From: an uncultured Lachnospiraceae bacterium
GTDB lineage: Bacteria; Bacillota; Clostridia; Lachnospirales; Lachnospiraceae
Reading direction: 5' to 3'
NCBI GenBank assembly: GCA_947565305.1
Contig: CANOFO010000009.1
Span: 1 to 49,266 of the forward strand
DNA: 49,266 nt
Position 1 is the stretch's first letter, and the number at the start of each line of letters is the position of its first letter. Under the pieces are notes generated by a model that was not told the DNA's origin, ran no database searches, and was given only the letters and a program-made list of their open reading frames with translations. Positions 6,713 through 35,328 of the stretch are shown here, piece after piece. A program made the position numbers and the translations under genes.

Positions 6713-8542
6713 ATGAAAATGAAACGTGAAGATATACGCAACATCGCCATCATCGCCCATGTCGACCACGGCAAGACCACGCTGGTGGATGAGCTGCTAA
6801 AACAAAGCGGCGTATTCCGCGCCAACCAGGAAGTGCAGGAGCGCGTGATGGATTCCAACGATATTGAGCGGGAACGCGGGATTACCATCCTTTCCAAAAA
6901 TACCGCTGTTTTTTATAAGGATACAAAAATCAACATTATTGACACCCCGGGACATGCAGACTTCGGCGGCGAAGTGGAGCGTGTGCTTAAGATGGTAAAC
7001 GGCGTTGTGCTCGTGGTGGACGCTTTCGAGGGCGCCATGCCGCAGACAAAATTCGTGCTGATGAAAGCCCTCGCCCTGGACCTCCCGGTGATTGTATGCA
7101 TCAACAAAATTGACCGCCCGGAAGCGCGCCCGGATGATGTGATTGACGAAGTACTGGAACTGTTCATGGATTTGGACGCCTCCGATGAGCAGCTCGACTG
7201 CCCCTTTGTTTATGCCTCGGCAAGAGACGGCTACGCCGTAAAAGACTTAAATGATGAAAAGAAAGACATGACCGCGCTGTTTGAGACCATTTTAGAGTAT
7301 ATCCCCGCACCGGAGGGAGACCCGGACGCCAACACGCAGGTGTTAATCAGCACCATCGACTACAATGAATATGTCGGACGTATCGGAGTGGGCAAAGTGG
7401 ACAACGGCTGCCTGAAAATCAACCAGGACGCCGTAGTGGTGAACCACCATGAACCGGATAAGCTACAGAAAGTGCGCATCAGCAAATTATATGAATTTGA
7501 TGGGCTGAACAAGGTGGACGTCACTGAAGCAAAAATCGGCTCCATCGTTGCCATCTCCGGCATCGCGGACATCCATATCGGAGATACCATCTGCGCCCCG
7601 GAAAATCCGCAGGCCATTGATTTCCAGAAGATTTCCGAACCCACGATTTCCATGAATTTTATTGTCAATGACAGCCCGCTTGCCGGACAGGAAGGCAAAT
7701 TCGTGACCTCCCGCCATATCCGCGACCGCCTGTTCCGCGAACTGAACACAGACGTCTCGCTGCGCGTGGAGGAGACAGACAGCCCGGACTGCCTGAAAGT
7801 ATCGGGCAGAGGGGAGCTGCATCTTTCCGTACTGATTGAAAACATGCGCCGGGAAGGCTACGAGTTTGCTGTCAGCAAGGCAGAAGTGTTATACCACACA
7901 GACGAAAAAGGCAAGCGTTTAGAGCCCATGGAACTTGCCTATGTCGATGTGCCGGATGAATTTACCGGCTCCGTCATTGAAAAGCTGAGCCAGCGCAAAG
8001 GGGAACTTCGGAATATGGGACCCATCAGCGGCGGCTACACACGGTTGGAGTTCAACATTCCCTCCCGGGGGCTTATCGGCTACCGCAATGAATTTATGAC
8101 AGACACAAAAGGAAACGGTATTATCAACACGATTTTTAACGGCTATGAGCCTTATAAAGGAGACATCGCTTACCGCAAGCAAGGCTCCCTTATCGCCTTT
8201 GAATCCGGCGAATCCGTCACCTATGGACTGTTCAGCGCCCAGGACCGCGGTACTTTGTTTATCGGTCCCGGAGAGAAAGTTTACGCCGGCATGGTCATCG
8301 GACAGTGTGCCAAGCCAGAAGACATTGAACTCAACGTGTGCAAGAAAAAGCACCTCACCAATACCCGCTCTTCGAGTGCAGATGAGGCGCTCACCCTGAC
8401 ACCGCCCAAAATCCTCAGCCTGGAACAGGCATTAGAATTTATCGAGACAGATGAACTTCTGGAGGTTACGCCTAAGAGCCTGCGCATCCGCAAACGGATT
8501 CTGGACCCGACTCTGCGCAAGCGGGCAGCCTTAAAAAAGTAA
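6713..8542 (+). CDS. typA: Ribosome-associated GTPase TypA/BipA
   Basis: A translational GTPase of the EF-G family that binds the 70S ribosome and aids assembly and growth under stress. The 609-residue length is normal for the family. The G1 P-loop AHVDHGKTT is at residues 15-23, switch [17 protein letters not shown] follows, then NKID (G4) and the two beta-barrel and EF-G-like domains; the C-terminal TypA domain includes [22 protein letters not shown] 6713 is chosen because AGAGGG lies just upstream; a TTG seven codons earlier lacks one. It is a single plus-strand gene with its own promoter. Its 3' neighbour runs convergently, and the space between them holds a tandem repeat. Confidence 0.97.
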
Positions 8543-13444: not shown

Positions 13445-16400
13445 TTACTTCACCTTTTTGCTGGTCAGGACCTTGCTCCATGCACCGGTAAGCTTCTTAG
13501 TCTTGCCGTTTACCTTCACCGTCTTGTATGCACGGATGCGCACATAATATTTCTTGCCCTTTTTCAGCTTCTTAATGGTTGTAGATGTCGTTTTTGCCTT
13601 CTTGATGTCCACTTTTTTAACGCCAGATTTAAACTTCTTATTCAGGCAGCACTGTACTTCATATCCGCTTGCCTTCGTATCTTTTTTCCAGGTCACCTTA
13701 AGCTGCTTTTTGCCCGGTTTCAGCTTGCTCAATGCAGCCTTTTTCGGATTTACCGTCAAGGTCACATTTGCTGTCTTTGACTTATAGTTAGCTGTCTCCT
13801 GTGCTGTTACGGTGATGGTGCAGATTCCACAGCCTTTGATTTCTATTTTACCATTCTTGGCATTGTAGTCTGCCACCTTCTTATCCGAACTTGTGTAACT
13901 CAGCTTGCCATCGCCATTGGTTTTCGCTCCCAAATCAAATGCTTTATCGCCAAATGCCTTGGTGATGCTGGCCTTGACATTGATTACCTGATCTTTCTTC
14001 TGCGCGGTCGGACCTGTCGGGTCTGATGGTCCTGGCTTCTGCGGCTGCTGTTTTGCCGGCGTCAGCAGGTCAACGGCATCCTGCAAATCTTTCACTGCTT
14101 CCTCTGCCTCTGCTTCCGTCAGCCCCTCTTCCTCAGCAAGCGCTCTGGCAGCGGAAAGAACCTCCTGGTAATAAGTCCACATAGCGTCCTTCTCATAGTT
14201 CTTCTCATCCGTTGCAGATATGGCAATCTTCTCGATGGATGACTGCAGATACTCTTTCGGGGTCTGCAATGCATTCATGGCATCCCGCAGTTCCAAAACT
14301 GCAGCTGCAATTTCTTCCTGCGTTGACAGCACATACCTCTGTACTTCAACTGCTTTCTCCAATGCTTCCTGGAATTTCTCCCAGCTTCTATCGGTATAAT
14401 TGCCTTTTTCTACACTCTCTGCCTCTCCGATAAGTTCCTGCAAAGCCTCCTTATCTTCACTTTCAAGGCTGCCCTGCTTTTCGTCCTGAATCACTGCAAT
14501 CCAGCTTAAGATTGGATCCGCTCCGCTTCCGGTAATGCTCACCGTCACTTTGGCATTCTCCGTCAAAGTGAATGCCACATTCTTCTGCAGCTTCTTGCTT
14601 CCTGCCACTTTAAACGTATCGGAAGAAACGAGGTCCTTGCCATTGGAGGTAACCACAATCTTCGTATTCCGGTCGCCGCTCCACCACTCATGGTAGCCGG
14701 TAGCCACCGTATAAGTTCCTTTTTCTAAGACAAACGCATAATCGATGGTGCTGTTCTTGGTTGCCCAATACCCAATTGACCACATGTCGTCGCCATCGCT
14801 CTTCACACCGAAGTCATACGTTGTATCACTGCTCGCAATTCCTTCTCCACCGTTTTCTCCGGTATATCCGGCAAGGTTCTCTACTGAATATGGCTGATCC
14901 ACATCTGCATTGCGCAGCTTATCTTCCAATTCATTCCTCAATATATCATGATACTGGGACTCTTCTGCCGCACAGTCAAAGAAGTAGATAAGTTTCTCAT
15001 TCCACAAAGTCACCTTGTGGGTAATGGCGCGCTCATGCTCTTTCGTATTCTTGGTGTATGTCATCGTACCCGACACGGTAATCTCACCCAAGGTCTTTTC
15101 CTCCGGCAGTGAATCCGTATCCCAAACAACAGCCGCCGTTGTCTCTGCCGTATCAGAAGCAAGTTTAATCTTAAGTGTTGCCGGCAGTTTCGTTTGCAGT
15201 TCTGCTACAGATTTTGCTGTCGCTGGCAGCTGCCCAGCCACTACCTCGTAAGGCTCTATATTTTCAAATATACTCTTATCCCAGTCACTGTACTTTCTCA
15301 GCGCAATCTCACCATCACCGGTGAACTCAATGGGCAGCCACACATATCTGGAATCGCGCAGACTGCCGCCAGCCCCTGGTCCTACAGAAATCTCGGGATT
15401 ATACCAGCGGTCTCCCATGTAGATATACTGACCCTTCTCAGCATCCATAGGAATGACACAGGTACTCTGGGTAAAGTAGGTGGTATTGGCATCTTCATCC
15501 GTACAGGGATCTCCCATCACTTTCCAGGGACCCAACGGAGTGTCTGCCACTGCATACTGTGCCGCATTGGGCGACCAGCCGCTGCAGCCCGAAGTAATCA
15601 GGTAATATTTGTCATTGTATTTAAACATTGCCGGCGCTTCCCGGGAACTGCCGATAAAGTTGACGGAGAAGTCCACGCCCTGGATGGCGCCTTCGTCATT
15701 TGTCTTGGCAATATTCGTGTAGGAATCATTCAGTTTGGCAATGTACATATTTGCATTACCGTCTGAGGAGTAGATAACATATGCTGTTCCGTCATCATCC
15801 TTAAACAAGTTCATGTCACGCACATTTCCGTGCCCATCGGCAAAGCCCTGCTTCAAGCCATCGACATAGTTGAGCAGATAAGAGCCCTTCATCTGGAACG
15901 GTCCGAATGGGCTGGATGACACTGCCACACCCGCTTTCGCTTTGGCATAGTTGCCACCGCTGCTGCCCGGAATCTGACCGTCTGCGTGAAACCAAATCAC
16001 ATACTGTTTTGTCTTTTCATTATAAATCATCTTCGGACGTTCAATGACACAGCCGGAATCCGTGGCATCATCGTCAGTCCAGATATCATTGTAAGCTAAT
16101 TTTTGCTCATCCTCCGACAGATTTCCATATAAATCCGTGAAATACTTATCGGTTGTAAACGTTTCCCAGTTAGGTACCGTGCGAAGCACACGCCCCATAT
16201 CTACCCAATTGAATAAATCCTGAGAGATGTATGCGTGTATTCCCGGACATGGACGGTAATCATTGGTTTTATCCTCGCCAATCCAATACCAGAATTCCTT
16301 CTCACTTGCTTCTATCTGCCCATTTCCATTAAAGTCATAGCCTTCTTCCCATTGAATCCTCTGCACCTGACCGCCGTGCGCCTGAATGACCTCTCCGTTA

Positions 16401-31457: not shown

Positions 31458-32816
31458 TTAAGATTCTGCAAGCCCCTGCTGCCGCAGCTTTTTCATCACA
31501 TACAGATACGCCGGAACTAAGAACAAGTCCGCCAATATCCATGCCGCCGGGCTTGCAAAACAGATTGCTGCATATCCGAACAAGGGTACAAGCATCATCG
31601 CCACAAGGCTGCGCGCTGCCATCTCACAGACCCCAGCCAGTATGGCAAACCGACTGAATCCCAGACCCTGGATAGTAAACCGCACAATATTTACCAGTGC
31701 AAGCGGGAAAAAGAAAGCGGAGTTGGCAGCAAGGAACCAGGAAACCTGTTGGATTATCAGCGTCTCGGAAGGAGCCACAAACAGCAAAGCAATTGTTCCC
31801 CCAAAACATACCAGCACAACACACGCCAAAACAGAATACCCCAGCCCCAGCAGACTGGTAGACTTGATGCCCTGGGAAATACGTTCCAGCTTCCCTGCCC
31901 CCACATTCTGCCCCGCATACGTTGCCATCGTGGAACCCATGGCATCGAAAGGACAGGCAAAAAACATGCTGATTTTGCTGCCCGCAGCAACTGCGGCAAC
32001 CGATATGGAGCCGAGGCTGTTCACCGCTGTCTGCAGGATAACGCTGCCAATCGCTGTGATGGAATACTGCAGCCCCATAGGGATTCCCATGTTACAGAGG
32101 ATTCCCACGCAATTGCTGTCAATGCGCCATTCATCCCTGGTAATTTTTAATATATCGAACCGCCGTATCATATAGAACAGACAGGCAATCCCTGAAATCA
32201 ATTGGGAAATCACCGTTGCCCAGGCTGCACCTGCCACCCCCATATGAAATGCCAGTATCAGCGTAACATCCAAAATTATATTCAGAATAGACGAAAATAC
32301 TAAAAAAAGCAATGGGCTTTTGCTGTCTCCCAGAGAACGTATAATCCCGGACAGCAAATTATACAGATACACTGCCGGAATCCCCATAAATATTACAAAA
32401 ATGTAGCTGTAAGAGCCATCTATGATATCCAGGGGCGTATTCATCCACAACAGAATCTGTCTGCAAAGTACACAGACTGCCACCGTCATCACTCCGGCAA
32501 ATGCAATGGACAGCCACACGCTGTTTGCCACATATTTCCTAAGGCTGTGGTAATCACCTGCCCCAAACCGCTGCGCCACCGGAATAGCAAACCCATTGCA
32601 CACTCCCATGCAAAAACCGATAATCATAAAATTAATAGAGCCGGTAGCTCCCACAGATGCCAAGGCGGAAACACCTAAAAACTGACCGACAATCAGCGTA
32701 TCCATCATATTGTAAAACTGCTGGAACAACATTCCAAAAAACAGCGGTATGCAGAACTGCAAAATCAGGCGAATCGGAGACCCCACTGTCATATCTTTTG
32801 TTACACTTTTTGCCAT
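31458..32816 (-). CDS. MATE-family multidrug efflux transporter
   Basis: A 452-residue, 12-helix exporter of the MATE family that uses a Na+ or H+ gradient to expel drugs or other organic cations. The usual repeats are present: GSPIRLILQFCIPLFFGMLFQQFYNMMDTLIVGQFLG in the first half (with the Gln-Asn-Asp pattern) and MGIPMGLQYSITAIGSVILQTAVN opening the second; GTMATYAGQNVGAG-like GSTMATYAGQNVGAG is typical. ATG 32816 has GGAGG upstream; a second ATG at 32837 overlaps the stop of a short leader frame. A MerR-type gene lies upstream on the same strand and an attenuator-like terminator lies in the leader, so expression is probably induced by a substrate. Confidence 0.93.
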   Translation of the reverse strand: MAKSVTKDMTVGSPIRLILQFCIPLFFGMLFQQFYNMMDTLIVGQFLGVSALASVGATGSINFMIIGFCMGVCNGFAIPVAQRFGAGDYHSLRKYVANSVWLSIAFAGVMTVAVCVLCRQILLWMNTPLDIIDGSYSYIFVIFMGIPAVYLYNLLSGIIRSLGDSKSPLLFLVFSSILNIILDVTLILAFHMGVAGAAWATVISQLISGIACLFYMIRRFDILKITRDEWRIDSNCVGILCNMGIPMGLQYSITAIGSVILQTAVNSLGSISVAAVAAGSKISMFFACPFDAMGSTMATYAGQNVGAGKLERISQGIKSTSLLGLGYSVLACVVLVCFGGTIALLFVAPSETLIIQQVSWFLAANSAFFFPLALVNIVRFTIQGLGFSRFAILAGVCEMAARSLVAMMLVPLFGYAAICFASPAAWILADLFLVPAYLYVMKKLRQQGLAES

Positions 32817-32833
32817 AGCAGCTACCTCCTCCA

Positions 32834-32896
32834 TCATTTTCTGTAGGGTAAAAAAAGAACCACCCAGACTGATTCCTCACTCATGTGGTTCTTCAT
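32834..32896 (-). CDS. Leader peptide of the MATE gene (20 aa)
   Basis: A 20-codon frame beginning MKNHMSEESVW and ending in TGA that overlaps the upstream MATE ATG (ATGA, 32837-32834). Its ATG lies only about 13 bases after the -10 box, so it may be read nearly leaderless; no clear Shine-Dalgarno is seen. It spans the whole terminator hairpin, so a ribosome stalled in it would control folding. Confidence 0.5.
   Translation of the reverse strand: MKNHMSEESVWVVLFLPYRK
32850..32893 (-). terminator. Attenuator terminator in the MATE leader
   Basis: Minus strand: AAGAACCAC (32893... complement of 32885-32893) pairs with GTGGTTCTT (32863-32855), a 9-bp stem with a 21-base loop, followed by Ts to 32850. 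It lies between the promoter and the MATE start, so it must be read through for expression. Confidence 0.75.
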
Positions 32897-32944: not shown

Positions 32945-33787
32945 TCACTTTTTCATTTTATGAGTATCCAGGTTCCTCCATGATATAAGTAAAATTCCAA
33001 TGAGTACAGCAGTGTCGGCCAACAGGAGCGCTGTAACATGCCTTACAATTCCCTTTATGAAGAAAATAGTAAACATTTCCAATGAAAAGATAATAAAACA
33101 AAAATAGTTTGTTATGTAATCACTAACAACATCACTGCAATTAAAATTATGTTCCAGCCATCTCCATATATATGGGCGCAATAAAAATCTTACAACGATA
33201 CATGCTATTGGATATGCAAAAATGAAGATTTTCCCAACTTCACTGCTTGCTTCCCCATCACTCCATTGAATTGGAATGTACGCTGGCAAATAGGGAAACA
33301 CGGAAAGTGCAAGCAATGCACATGCCCCCATAATAAATGCCCATGCTAATGAACCACCCCACAGATAAATAAAACCGACAGAATCCATTTCAAATATTTT
33401 ACTGTTAGATTCCCAATAATCCACAACTTCCGGCACATAGGCTTCTATATCCAACCCATCGTAGGTTATTTCCTCATCAGCCAGCATCTTATTACATATC
33501 GATTTCGATTTTTCCAAATCTTCTATCTGCCCATCAAGTTTTTTCAGTTGTTTTTCAATCACTGTACGCAATTCTATTTTATGTTCCATAATTTGATGGA
33601 TATTTTCAATTGAAATGCCCAATGTTCGCAGATATGCAATTTTCCGGATATTATCAATATCTTCTTCTGTATAAATCCGGTAACCATTGCTCTCATCCCT
33701 GGCAGGTTGTATCAAATTTTCTTTCTCATAAAAACGAATGCTGGAACGCGCAAGTCCCGTCCTCGCTTCTGCCTCCTTAATTGTCAT
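32945..33787 (-). CDS. Membrane-anchored MerR-family regulator with DUF1648-like domain
   Basis: A 280-residue protein. Residues 1-70 form a MerR winged helix-turn-helix (TIKEAEARTGLARSSIRFYEKENLI, NGYRIYTEEDIDNIRKIAYLRTLGISIENI), followed by the usual dimerising coiled coil to about residue 115. Instead of a small soluble sensor, the rest (about 150-275) has four hydrophobic segments with YIPIQWSDGEASSEVGK between them, close to the DUF1648/SdpI motif. So the regulator appears to sense at the membrane. ATG 33787 follows AAGGAAG. It has its own MerR-type promoter, and the MATE gene follows on the same strand. SdpI-like domains give immunity to membrane-active toxins; the signal here is unknown. 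Confidence 0.85.
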   Translation of the reverse strand: MTIKEAEARTGLARSSIRFYEKENLIQPARDESNGYRIYTEEDIDNIRKIAYLRTLGISIENIHQIMEHKIELRTVIEKQLKKLDGQIEDLEKSKSICNKMLADEEITYDGLDIEAYVPEVVDYWESNSKIFEMDSVGFIYLWGGSLAWAFIMGACALLALSVFPYLPAYIPIQWSDGEASSEVGKIFIFAYPIACIVVRFLLRPYIWRWLEHNFNCSDVVSDYITNYFCFIIFSLEMFTIFFIKGIVRHVTALLLADTAVLIGILLISWRNLDTHKMKK

Positions 33788-33837
33788 AATCTTCCTTCTC
33801 CATTCCATTTTATCCAATTTTTCCAATGTCAATACTT

Positions 33838-33868
33838 AAAATAAAGCATAAACAAGGTTTACAGTCAA
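33838..33868 (-). promoter_or_regulatory. MerR-type promoter with operator in the spacer
   Basis: Minus strand: TTGACT (33868-33863), a 19-base spacer and TATTTT (33843-33838). The long 19-bp spacer contains the inverted repeat TAAAC-CTT-GTTTA (33861-33849). A long spacer with a central palindrome is the hallmark of MerR-regulated promoters, so autoregulation is likely. Confidence 0.55.
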
Positions 33869-33953
33869 TCTTTTTACTCAAACTTATCTTATTTTAACAT
33901 GGCAAAATCTTTTTCAAATAGAATCAGAACGTTCGTCTATTTATATCTACACA

Positions 33954-34302
33954 ATTTTAATTCTCTACAAACGTTTTGAAATGACCCAGAAACAATGCTC
34001 TCGCGAGTATACCTTTCCATAATTGTCAAATTTATTCAGAGAGATAATTTGCTTTATACATATTAAACAGCCGCACTCCCAGCCCCTACTCCAAAGGCGA
34101 CCTGTAGAGTGCTACATAAATAAAGGGTTAAGTGCATTTCCCTTCTCTCCTCTGCTCAAGGGGAACGGAAGAATCTGTTGTTATCGCGTCCATCTTGCAT
34201 ATTTTAATTCTCTCCCCTACTCGTGGGGCGACCCTATCCTGCCTGTCAAGGCGTTTTCCTATCTCGATTTCAATTCTCGCCCCCCCTATACGAGGGGCGA
34301 TG
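33954..34302. CRISPR. Degenerate type I-C-like CRISPR array remnant, no cas genes
   Basis: Repeat-like units of about 32 bases start near 34070, 34136, 34201 and 34267, separated by 33-34 bases. The best two read ATTTTAATTCTC-TCCCC-...-GGGGCGAC (34201-34232) and ATTTCAATTCTCGCCCC...GGGGCGA (34267-34300). The unit at 34136 keeps ATTTC..TTCTCTCC..CTC..GGGG; that at 34070 keeps CCCCTACTC..GGCGAC. A further unit at 33954-33985 shares its first 13 bases with 34201 and ends GAC, but is off register. The end ATTTCAAT, the GC hairpin and the GCGAC end match type I-C repeats read in reverse, so the array would be transcribed leftwards. The rest of 33869-34356 shows no gene. Confidence 0.6.
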
Positions 34303-34356
34303 AAAGATGAAATCCTCCAGAGCATTAAGGAACAGACTGCTTGCTCATACGCAGTA

Positions 34357-34554
34357 TCAGCAGAAATTCTGCTCCAGCCCTTCCACAATCTGATGCATTT
34401 CCGATTTAGTGGTAACATTCCTTGCCGCCTCTACCACCTGGCGTTTTTCCTCATCGTTCAGTTTGCCATACGCATCCATCGCTTTGGGGTTCATCCCAAG
34501 CTGGAAGCTTAAGCCCATAGGCATATCATAACTGTAATCTGTTTTTCCATCCAT
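34357..34554 (-). CDS. Conserved small protein of Lachnospiraceae, unknown function (65 aa)
   Basis: A 65-residue soluble protein with PMGLSFQLGMNPKAMDAYGKL, then DEEKRQVVEAARNVTTKSEMHQIVEGL. The pattern of a short Gly/Ser-rich start, a run of 'MN..AM..Y..L' and a helical 'EEK..VV...R.V.SK.EM..IV' end is one I have met in small uncharacterised proteins of Clostridia, sometimes predicted as spore-related or stress proteins; no function is known. ATG 34554 has AAAGGAGG at 8 bases. It lies downstream of spoVAC on the same strand, separated by the tandem repeats at 34576-34844, and could be the last gene of that fragment. Confidence 0.75.
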   Translation of the reverse strand: MDGKTDYSYDMPMGLSFQLGMNPKAMDAYGKLNDEEKRQVVEAARNVTTKSEMHQIVEGLEQNFC

Positions 34555-34575
34555 ACGCAATTCCTCCTTTCACAT

Positions 34576-34745
34576 GGTAACGGCACGCCCCGCTTTGCGG
34601 CACCTGCCATTTCGGCGGAAGGCATTCCTCTCGGGTAACGGCACGTCCCGCTTTGCGGCACCTGCCATTTCGGCGGAAGGCATTCCTCTCGGGTAACGGC
34701 ACGTCCCGCTTTGCGGCACCTGCCATTTCGGCGGAAGGCATTCCA
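34576..34745. repeat. 58-bp tandem repeat, about three copies
   Basis: Units start GGTAACGGCACG at 34576, 34634 and 34692, nearly identical (first copy GCCCCG for GTCCCG). Each contains CCGCTTTGCGG and TTCGGCGGAAGGCATTCC. A related single copy lies at 21031-21118. Noncoding spacer between spoVAC and the small gene at 34554. Confidence 0.95.
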
Positions 34746-34748
34746 GAA

Positions 34749-34844
34749 ATGCTTCGCATTTGCTTTCCTCCTATGCTTCGCATTTGCCTTCCTCCTATGC
34801 TTCGCATTTGCCTTCCTCCTATGCTGCGCATTTGCCTTCCTCCT
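34749..34844. repeat. 24-bp tandem repeat carrying SD and ATG, four copies
   Basis: Units ATGCTTCGCATTTGCCTTCC(TCCT) start at 34749, 34773, 34797 and 34821. On the minus strand each copy reads AGGAGG, 7 bases, ATG, that is a complete ribosome binding site and start codon. Each unit is 8 codons long, so the frame stays open through all copies (MRSIGGRQ repeats). Confidence 0.95.
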
Positions 34845-34845
34845 T

Positions 34846-35328
34846 CTAACATACTCCCATCAGTTTCAATATCCAGTAAATCAGCCCCAGCAGCCAACTC
34901 GTGAAAATCCCATAAAGAATAACCGGACCTGCAATCGTGAAAATCTTGCAGCCAATGCCAAAGACCTGTCCCTCTTTCTGGAACTCAATCGCCGGAGCCG
35001 CCACGGAATTGGCAAACCCCGTGATGGGTACCAGCGCACCAGCGCCGCCCCAGTTGGCAATGGAAGGATAGATGTTTAACCCAGTCAGCAGCACGCTTAA
35101 GAAAACCAGTATCATGCTGCACCAGCTCCCGGCCGTCTCCTTGTCCAGACCGAAATTATTGGCTGCCATGTTCAAGATAAACTGCCCAATTGCACAGATA
35201 ATCCCTCCCACCACGAACGCCTTTGCCATATTTGCCGGCAGGGAATGTGTGGGGGTCACCTGCTTGACGTATTCATTATATTCCTGATTTTTCTTTTCTT
35301 TCTGTTCCATCGTCTCTTGCTGTGCCAT
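34846..35328 (-). CDS. spoVAC: Stage V sporulation protein AC
   Basis: The mechanosensitive membrane subunit of the SpoVA dipicolinic acid channel in the forespore inner membrane. The 160-residue protein has a polar N-terminus of about 35 residues ending YVKQVTPTHSLP, then several membrane segments with the family's Gly-rich stretches: AFVVGGIICAIGQFIL, LNIYPSIANWGGAGALVPITGFANSVA, EFQKEGQVFGIGCKIFTIAGPVI. GAGGAG precedes ATG 35328. spoVAB lies upstream beyond a 170-base repeat-filled gap. Its normal downstream partners spoVAD and spoVAE lie about 5 kb further on, past unrelated genes. Confidence 0.95.
   Translation of the reverse strand: MAQQETMEQKEKKNQEYNEYVKQVTPTHSLPANMAKAFVVGGIICAIGQFILNMAANNFGLDKETAGSWCSMILVFLSVLLTGLNIYPSIANWGGAGALVPITGFANSVAAPAIEFQKEGQVFGIGCKIFTIAGPVILYGIFTSWLLGLIYWILKLMGVC

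What the first reader, a model, noticed from the sequence alone, without database searches (positions are those of the whole stretch)
33954..34302. Fossil CRISPR array with correct 65-66 bp register but decayed repeats
Four repeat-like units start at 34070, 34136, 34201 and 34267, a spacing of 66, 65 and 66 bases, with 32-base units and 33-34-base spacers, as in type I-C arrays. The repeat keeps ATTTYAATTCTC, the C-rich/G-rich hairpin and the GCGA end. Decay is strongest at the left end. A fifth unit at 33954 keeps a 13-base identity. No cas genes are in the window. It sits in the insertion that splits spoVA, hinting that this interval was once occupied by a CRISPR locus.
Basis: partly seen in the sequence, partly recalled or inferred. 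Interest (0 to 1): 0.7.

Follow-up and report, generated by a model that had tools for sequence, protein, structure and literature searches.

The report
Decayed remnant of lost CRISPR locus
This short stretch looks like the worn-out tail of a bacterial CRISPR immune memory whose working genes are gone from this spot but still present at the same place in a sister species; one old memory in it still matches a phage gene.

Summary
Window 34070-34301 is a decayed four-repeat type I-C CRISPR array. (1) Scored against the repeat of congener G005, the four best positions of the window, both strands, are exactly these units, in 66/65/66 register; joint score 93, best elsewhere in the window 67, 0 of 2000 local shuffles reached it, and the best joint score in 80 related loci is 66. 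(2) In G005 the same slot, between the spoVA side and MATE, holds cas3-cas5-cas8c-cas7-cas4-cas1-cas2 and an array with the same 32-bp repeat, spread over four contigs. (3) The spacer 34233-34266 matches a phage gene 33/34 in two IMG/VR contigs and 31/34 in congener G003; a 31/34 contig carries portal and major head genes. Searches for Cas1, Cas5c, Cas7 and Cas8c found none in this genome, 83% complete. Three points fail: the fifth unit at 33954 is chance level, unit 4 is 35 bases, and the interval does not split spoVA. Best reading: cas genes and leader were deleted, leaving a non-functional trailer-side stub. Such relics are known; interest is modest.

The parts
34267..34301 (-). Repeat unit 4 (closest to the former leader side), 35 nt with three extra C relative to the 32-nt repeat; stem-loop still intact
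   Evidence: 23/32 ungapped to the G005 repeat; folds at -19.0 kcal/mol, G005 repeat -14.8
34233..34266 (-). Spacer S34; the crRNA-sense strand reads EIGKRLDRQDR in one frame; matches a phage gene
   Evidence: G003, 94% of 33 nt; 33/34 in L075 and L076, 31/34 in L074 and G003, 26/34 in L077
34201..34232 (-). Repeat unit 3, 28/32 to the G005 repeat; stem weakened
34168..34200 (-). Spacer S23 (33 nt), no source found
34136..34167 (-). Repeat unit 2, 21/32, strongly decayed
34102..34135 (-). Spacer S12 (34 nt), no source found (not searched in IMG/VR)
34070..34101 (-). Repeat unit 1 (trailer side), 21/32, strongly decayed
   Evidence: (D3)
34302..34353 (.). Unassigned stretch between unit 4 and the point where homology to relatives resumes; perhaps one more spacer plus the deletion scar
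   Evidence: no match to this part in 61 genomes, INPHARED, the compared slots, IMG/VR by codon pattern, held loci
34357..34554 (-). Small ORF (65 aa, no Pfam or NCBIfam match at E<=0.001) that bounds the slot on the right; found in relatives
32945..33832 (-). MerR-type regulator, slot content of this genome, no visible relation to CRISPR
31458..32837 (-). MATE transporter that bounds the slot on the left; its orthologue flanks the array in G005

Best explanation
It is the trailer-side stub of a degraded type I-C CRISPR-Cas locus. G005 carries, in the slot between the spoVAA-AB-AC side and the MATE gene, a cas3-5-8c-7-4-1-2 operon, a leader-like stretch and an array (shown, over four contigs); that the common ancestor of G005 and the window's species carried it is inferred. 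In the window's lineage a deletion removed the cas genes, the leader and the leader-side repeats (inferred: homology to relatives on the spoVA side stops at 34354-34356, 53-55 bases from unit 4). The four repeats left can no longer be renewed by spacer acquisition and mutate freely: unit 3 differs from the G005 repeat about as much as the flanks do, and units 1 and 2, at the trailer end where repeats are often degenerate anyway, differ more. While active it would have stored phage fragments as spacers and made crRNAs guiding Cascade and Cas3 (general knowledge of type I-C); S34 is the surviving record of such a phage. Today it is most likely non-functional.
For: The four units are the four best repeat matches in the window and stand in register. 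At <=3 mismatches the repeat occurs in 2 of 29 genomes of the genus: G000 once, G005 15 times. The G005 locus lies in the orthologous slot: MATE (96% aa) and spoVAD (97% aa) on the array side, spoVAA/AB/AC (93-97% aa) on the cas3 side; contigs C56-C245-C275 share exact 55-nt end overlaps; Cas1c, Csd2 and Cas5d models are met above cut-off, Csd1 just below it (214.1 against 218.65 bits). S34 matches a phage gene 33/34 and identity stops at both repeat borders; the 31/34 contig L082 has portal, minor head, scaffold, major head and adaptor genes. Flanks are 88.6-89.3% identical to G005, unit 3 28/32. No Cas1, Cas5d, Csd2 or Csd1 in G000.
Against: The genome is 83% complete in 202 contigs, so cas genes elsewhere cannot be excluded. 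No spacer is shared: the 15 G005 spacers reach at most 19 of 33-35 against 33850-34360. The bases next to the S34 protospacer are GTC or GAC, not the TTC recalled for type I-C. S34 has no match in INPHARED. S12 and S23 have no known source. The left parts of the slots (MerR here, IS110-type fragment in G005) show no homology.
Confidence: 0.93

Rival explanations
1. Orphan array still in use: units 3-4 are transcribed from a nearby promoter and served by Cas proteins encoded elsewhere in the genome or on a mobile element.
For: Unit 4 keeps a strong stem-loop (-19.0 kcal/mol) and unit 3 a weaker one (-8.2); S34 still matches phages; the genome is 83% complete.
Against: No Cas1, Cas5d, Csd2 or Csd1 in G000; no G005-like leader beside unit 4 (sequences printed, compared by eye); unit 4 carries a 3-base insertion and unit 3 has lost stem pairs, as expected without selection.
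Confidence: 0.04
2. CreTA-like degenerate-repeat RNA that represses a toxic RNA with the help of Cascade.
For: CreA genes carry divergent, degenerate CRISPR-like repeats (starts of the abstracts of PMC8501985 and PMC9458426, seen in the listing).
Against: Four units in array register, where the listing speaks of one or two repeats in most cases; no cas genes found to carry out repression; one spacer matches phage. Partial complementarity to local promoters was not tested.
Confidence: 0.02
3. Chance resemblance or an unrelated repeated element.
For: The left half of the repeat alone is only weakly enriched in the window (13 matches, mean 7.6 expected, 3 of 100 shuffles as many), Rfam has no match, and unrelated tandem repeats lie at 34576-34857.
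Against: Register and score test with controls, cas-bearing locus in the orthologous slot and a phage-matching spacer bounded by the repeats.
Confidence: 0.01

Closest known systems
Type I-C CRISPR-Cas locus of the congener G005 (contigs C56, C245, C275, C71)
   Same: Same repeat family, 65-67-nt period, same chromosomal slot, same orientation (array end towards MATE, cas side towards spoVA)
   Different: G005 has seven cas genes, a leader-like stretch and near-identical repeats; the window has four decayed repeats and none of the genes
Degraded CRISPR/cas loci of Escherichia and Salmonella (PMC2886076, passages read)
   Different: Other subtypes (the paper's Ecoli and Ypest subtypes) and other hosts; there several stages of decay are described, here one cas-bearing and one decayed species

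Membership tests
CRISPR array (type I-C repeat family) | Direct repeats of one family at regular 60-70-nt spacing | tested here: met
   Four units, spacing 66/65/66; 0 of 2000 shuffles; best joint score 66 in 80 related loci against 93
CRISPR array (type I-C repeat family) | Repeat belongs to an array next to type I-C cas genes in a relative | tested here: met
   G005 C275: cas7-cas4-cas1-cas2, leader-like stretch, repeats
CRISPR array (type I-C repeat family) | Unique spacers derived from phage or plasmid | tested here: met
   1 of 3 spacers: S34, 33/34 in two viral contigs; S12 and S23 without source
CRISPR array (type I-C repeat family) | Protospacer-adjacent TTC | tested here: inconclusive
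   GTC in L074-L076, GAC in G003 and L077; target of one G005 spacer has TGT or GTC; TTC itself is recalled, no call
CRISPR array (type I-C repeat family) | Leader next to the newest repeat | tested here: not met
   34302-34353 does not resemble the G005 leader-like stretch (printed, compared by eye)
Functional type I-C CRISPR-Cas system | Cas5c, Cas7, Cas8c, Cas3 and Cas1-2 present | tested here: not met
   No Csd1, Csd2, Cas5d or Cas1 in G000, 83% complete. Cas3 and Cas2 were not searched in the whole genome, only in the window
CreTA | Degenerate repeat RNA plus small toxic RNA, worked by Cascade | tested here: not met
   No Cascade genes found; the toxic RNA was not tested

The most novel reading that the evidence does not exclude
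The unit 3 - S34 - unit 4 mini-array is still expressed and used by Cas proteins supplied in trans, so that a species without its own cas genes keeps immunity to one phage family by borrowing.
Probability: 0.03. Interest if true: 0.6.

Novelty: new member of a known kind. Interest (0 to 1): 0.3.

Why it matters
It documents CRISPR-Cas loss in a Lachnospiraceae genus (family from the record titles): cas-bearing locus and relic at the same site in two species whose flanks are about 89% identical in DNA, with a fossil spacer that still names the phage family. The slot between the spoVA side and MATE varies across the genus (I-C locus, a gene that reads like a C5 methyltransferase, a Schlafen/AlbA-type gene, a choloylglycine-hydrolase-family gene, or nearly empty), so it is a place to look for gain and loss of defence genes.

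Tried and rejected
Fifth unit at 33954: 16/32 to the repeat, a level reached at 244 positions, out of register; rejected. 'Insertion splits spoVA': rejected, G002 has the same order from spoVAC on with a nearly empty slot. Rfam: no match at gathering score. INPHARED phages: no match for 34222-34280, for 34060-34360, or for the G005 array. Codon-degenerate patterns for S23 and for part of 34302-34335 in IMG/VR: 0 matches each. S23 and S12 with up to 3 mismatches in 61 genomes: only the window itself. In 172 of 178 held loci (the six that hold the window's own array left out) S23 reaches 23/33, S12 22/34, 34302-34335 23/34, which is chance level; S34 reaches 33/34. The same comparison was void for the window's spacers, because a locus holding the window itself had been left in. 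Match of G009 to 34131-34157 in a gene that I read as plsX (and sequence) overlaps unit 2; taken as chance, not followed. PAM from G005 spacers: one spacer matches G014 31/35 and G023 30/35, no TTC; inconclusive. Slot survey of 80 loci from named genomes (207 relatives found, best 80 kept): 11 show MATE within reach of spoVAC, none of them with a cas hit. Five of the 80 loci have a single repeat score of 21 or 22; one of these, L112, is among the 11, but its 21 at 13516 lies outside its slot (6890-7380), and no locus has a joint score above 66.

Full report
What is there. On the + strand the units read 34070-34101 (U1), 34136-34167 (U2), 34201-34232 (U3) and 34267-34301 (U4); the spacers are 34102-34135 (S12), 34168-34200 (S23) and 34233-34266 (S34). 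The repeat-sense strand is the minus strand, judged from the G005 locus, where repeats read GTCGCCCC...GAGAATTGAAAT away from cas2. U4 is 35 nt because of three extra C.

Is it more than chance? Each position of both strands was compared, without gaps, with the two variants of the repeat of the congener G005. The four best positions of the window are U3 (28/32), U4 (23), U1 (21) and U2 (21); the fifth best is 20. The summed score in the 66/131/197 register is 93, against a maximum of 59 elsewhere on + and 67 on -, and 0 of 2000 dinucleotide-preserving shuffles of 33850-34350 reached it (highest 64). As a second control, 2,733,224 positions of 80 related loci were scored: the best joint score is 66, while single scores of 21 or 22 occur in five loci. 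So U1 and U2 alone could be chance; in register with U3 and U4 they are not. The proposed fifth unit at 33954 scores 16, a level reached at 244 positions, and lies out of register. A plain pattern scan of the left half of the repeat is only weakly enriched (13 matches, mean 7.59 expected, 3 of 100 shuffles as many).

The relative with cas genes. A search of 61 genomes with 33860-34560 gave repeat-bearing matches in G005 only. Among 29 genomes of the genus the repeat with up to 3 mismatches occurs in G000 (one unit) and G005 (15 copies) and in none of the other 27. G005 contig C71 carries a SpoVAC/AEB-family gene, spoVAD, the deacetylase, MATE, an IS110-type fragment and then 14 repeat copies up to the contig end, the first and last incomplete (names of the first four by homology to the window genes). 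C275 carries cas7, cas4, cas1, cas2, a leader-like stretch and two full repeats; C245 the end of cas3, cas5 and cas8c; C56 spoVAA, AB, AC, the small ORF, a GNAT gene and the start of cas3. C56-C245 and C245-C275 share exact 55-nt end overlaps; the link C275-C71 inside the array is inferred from the shared repeat and the shared flanks. NCBIfam gives Cas1c, Csd2, Cas5d, Cas4, Cas2 and Cas3 HD above cut-off; Csd1 reaches 214.1 bits, just below its 218.65, and the cas3 helicase pieces, cut by the contig end, stay below theirs. Relic and cas-bearing locus thus occupy the same slot, with the cas side towards spoVA in G005.

The slot. Homology with relatives stops at about 32946-32953 on the left and 34354-34356 on the right. 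In G002 the slot is nearly empty (small ORF to MATE about 270 bp); in G012 it holds a gene that reads like a DNA cytosine-5 methyltransferase (my reading of the translation; no family search); in G001 a Schlafen/AlbA_2 plus HATPase_c_4 gene; in G003 a choloylglycine-hydrolase-family gene, two collagen-repeat genes and a glycosyltransferase. The split of spoVA is therefore not caused by the CRISPR locus.

The spacer. The first hit was G003 C33:23414-23446, 94% over 33 nt, which is 34233-34265, the spacer and nothing else. The gene there (77 aa) has no PHROG match itself; 7 of 10 proteins of that stretch match PHROG families at E<=0.01, none a structural hallmark. Eight IMG/VR loci encode relatives of the gene. 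Ungapped, S34 matches 33/34 in L075 and L076, 31/34 in L074 (same contig as L082) and G003, 26/34 in L077 (same contig as L083), and 16-18/34 in the other four, L078-L081, where the stretch is missing from the match or diverged. L075 and L076 may be the same phage in two samples. Of 10 proteins of L082 scanned, five are portal, minor head, scaffold, major head and head-tail adaptor by PHROG. For comparison, 12 of 13 G005 spacers reach only 21-24 of 33-35 in held sequence; the thirteenth has a true-looking match, 31/35. The three bases before the S34 protospacer are GTC (L074-L076) or GAC (G003, L077), not TTC. S34 with short flanks has no INPHARED match. S12 and S23 gave nothing (S12 was not searched in IMG/VR).

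How it worked and what happened. From general knowledge of type I-C systems: the array would have been transcribed from the spoVA side, cut by Cas5c and used with Cas7, Cas8c and Cas3. In this lineage cas genes and leader are gone from the slot. Searches for Csd1, Csd2, Cas5d and Cas1 in G000 (82.95% complete) found nothing, while G005 gave a match each time. U3 at 28/32 is as far from the G005 repeat as the flanks are from G005 (88.6-89.3% identity), while U1 and U2 are at 21/32. Folding agrees with loss of constraint towards the left: G005 repeat -14.8, U4 -19.0, U3 -8.2, U2 -6.9, U1 -10.2 kcal/mol, z-scores -4.1, -4.0, -2.3, -0.9, -0.9. That the G005 and window loci are one inherited locus is inferred from slot and repeat; no spacer is shared.

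Precedent. In Escherichia and Salmonella, cas clusters with total or partial deletions, CRISPR reduced to a few copies as relics, and a usually degenerate terminal repeat are described (PMC2886076, passages only). The finding is a further case of that kind, documented by its cas-bearing sister locus. No paper on this particular locus was looked for.

Noticed in passing
34576-34857: Three 58-bp tandem repeats followed by 24-bp repeats between the small ORF and spoVAC; similar units occur in G002 at another place (L086 4556-4733), so this looks like a dispersed repeat family.
   Followed up: partly
32953-34356 (slot) and relatives L041, L043, L044, L048: The interval between MATE and the spoVA-side small ORF varies across the genus, holding different genes including possible defence genes and a choloylglycine-hydrolase-family gene.
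   Followed up: partly
32945-33832: MerR regulator with a below-cut-off DUF1648 match, in the slot; no hit in the other loci compared.
   Followed up: no
L021 12014-12048 (G005): A spacer of the G005 array matches G014 (31/35) and G023 (30/35).
   Followed up: partly
34131-34157: Near match (96%, one gap) to a plsX-like gene in G009, overlapping unit 2; probably chance.
   Followed up: no
L022 3331-3408 (G005 C275 end): The contig ends in an inverted copy of part of its last spacer and repeat, probably an assembly artefact.
   Followed up: no
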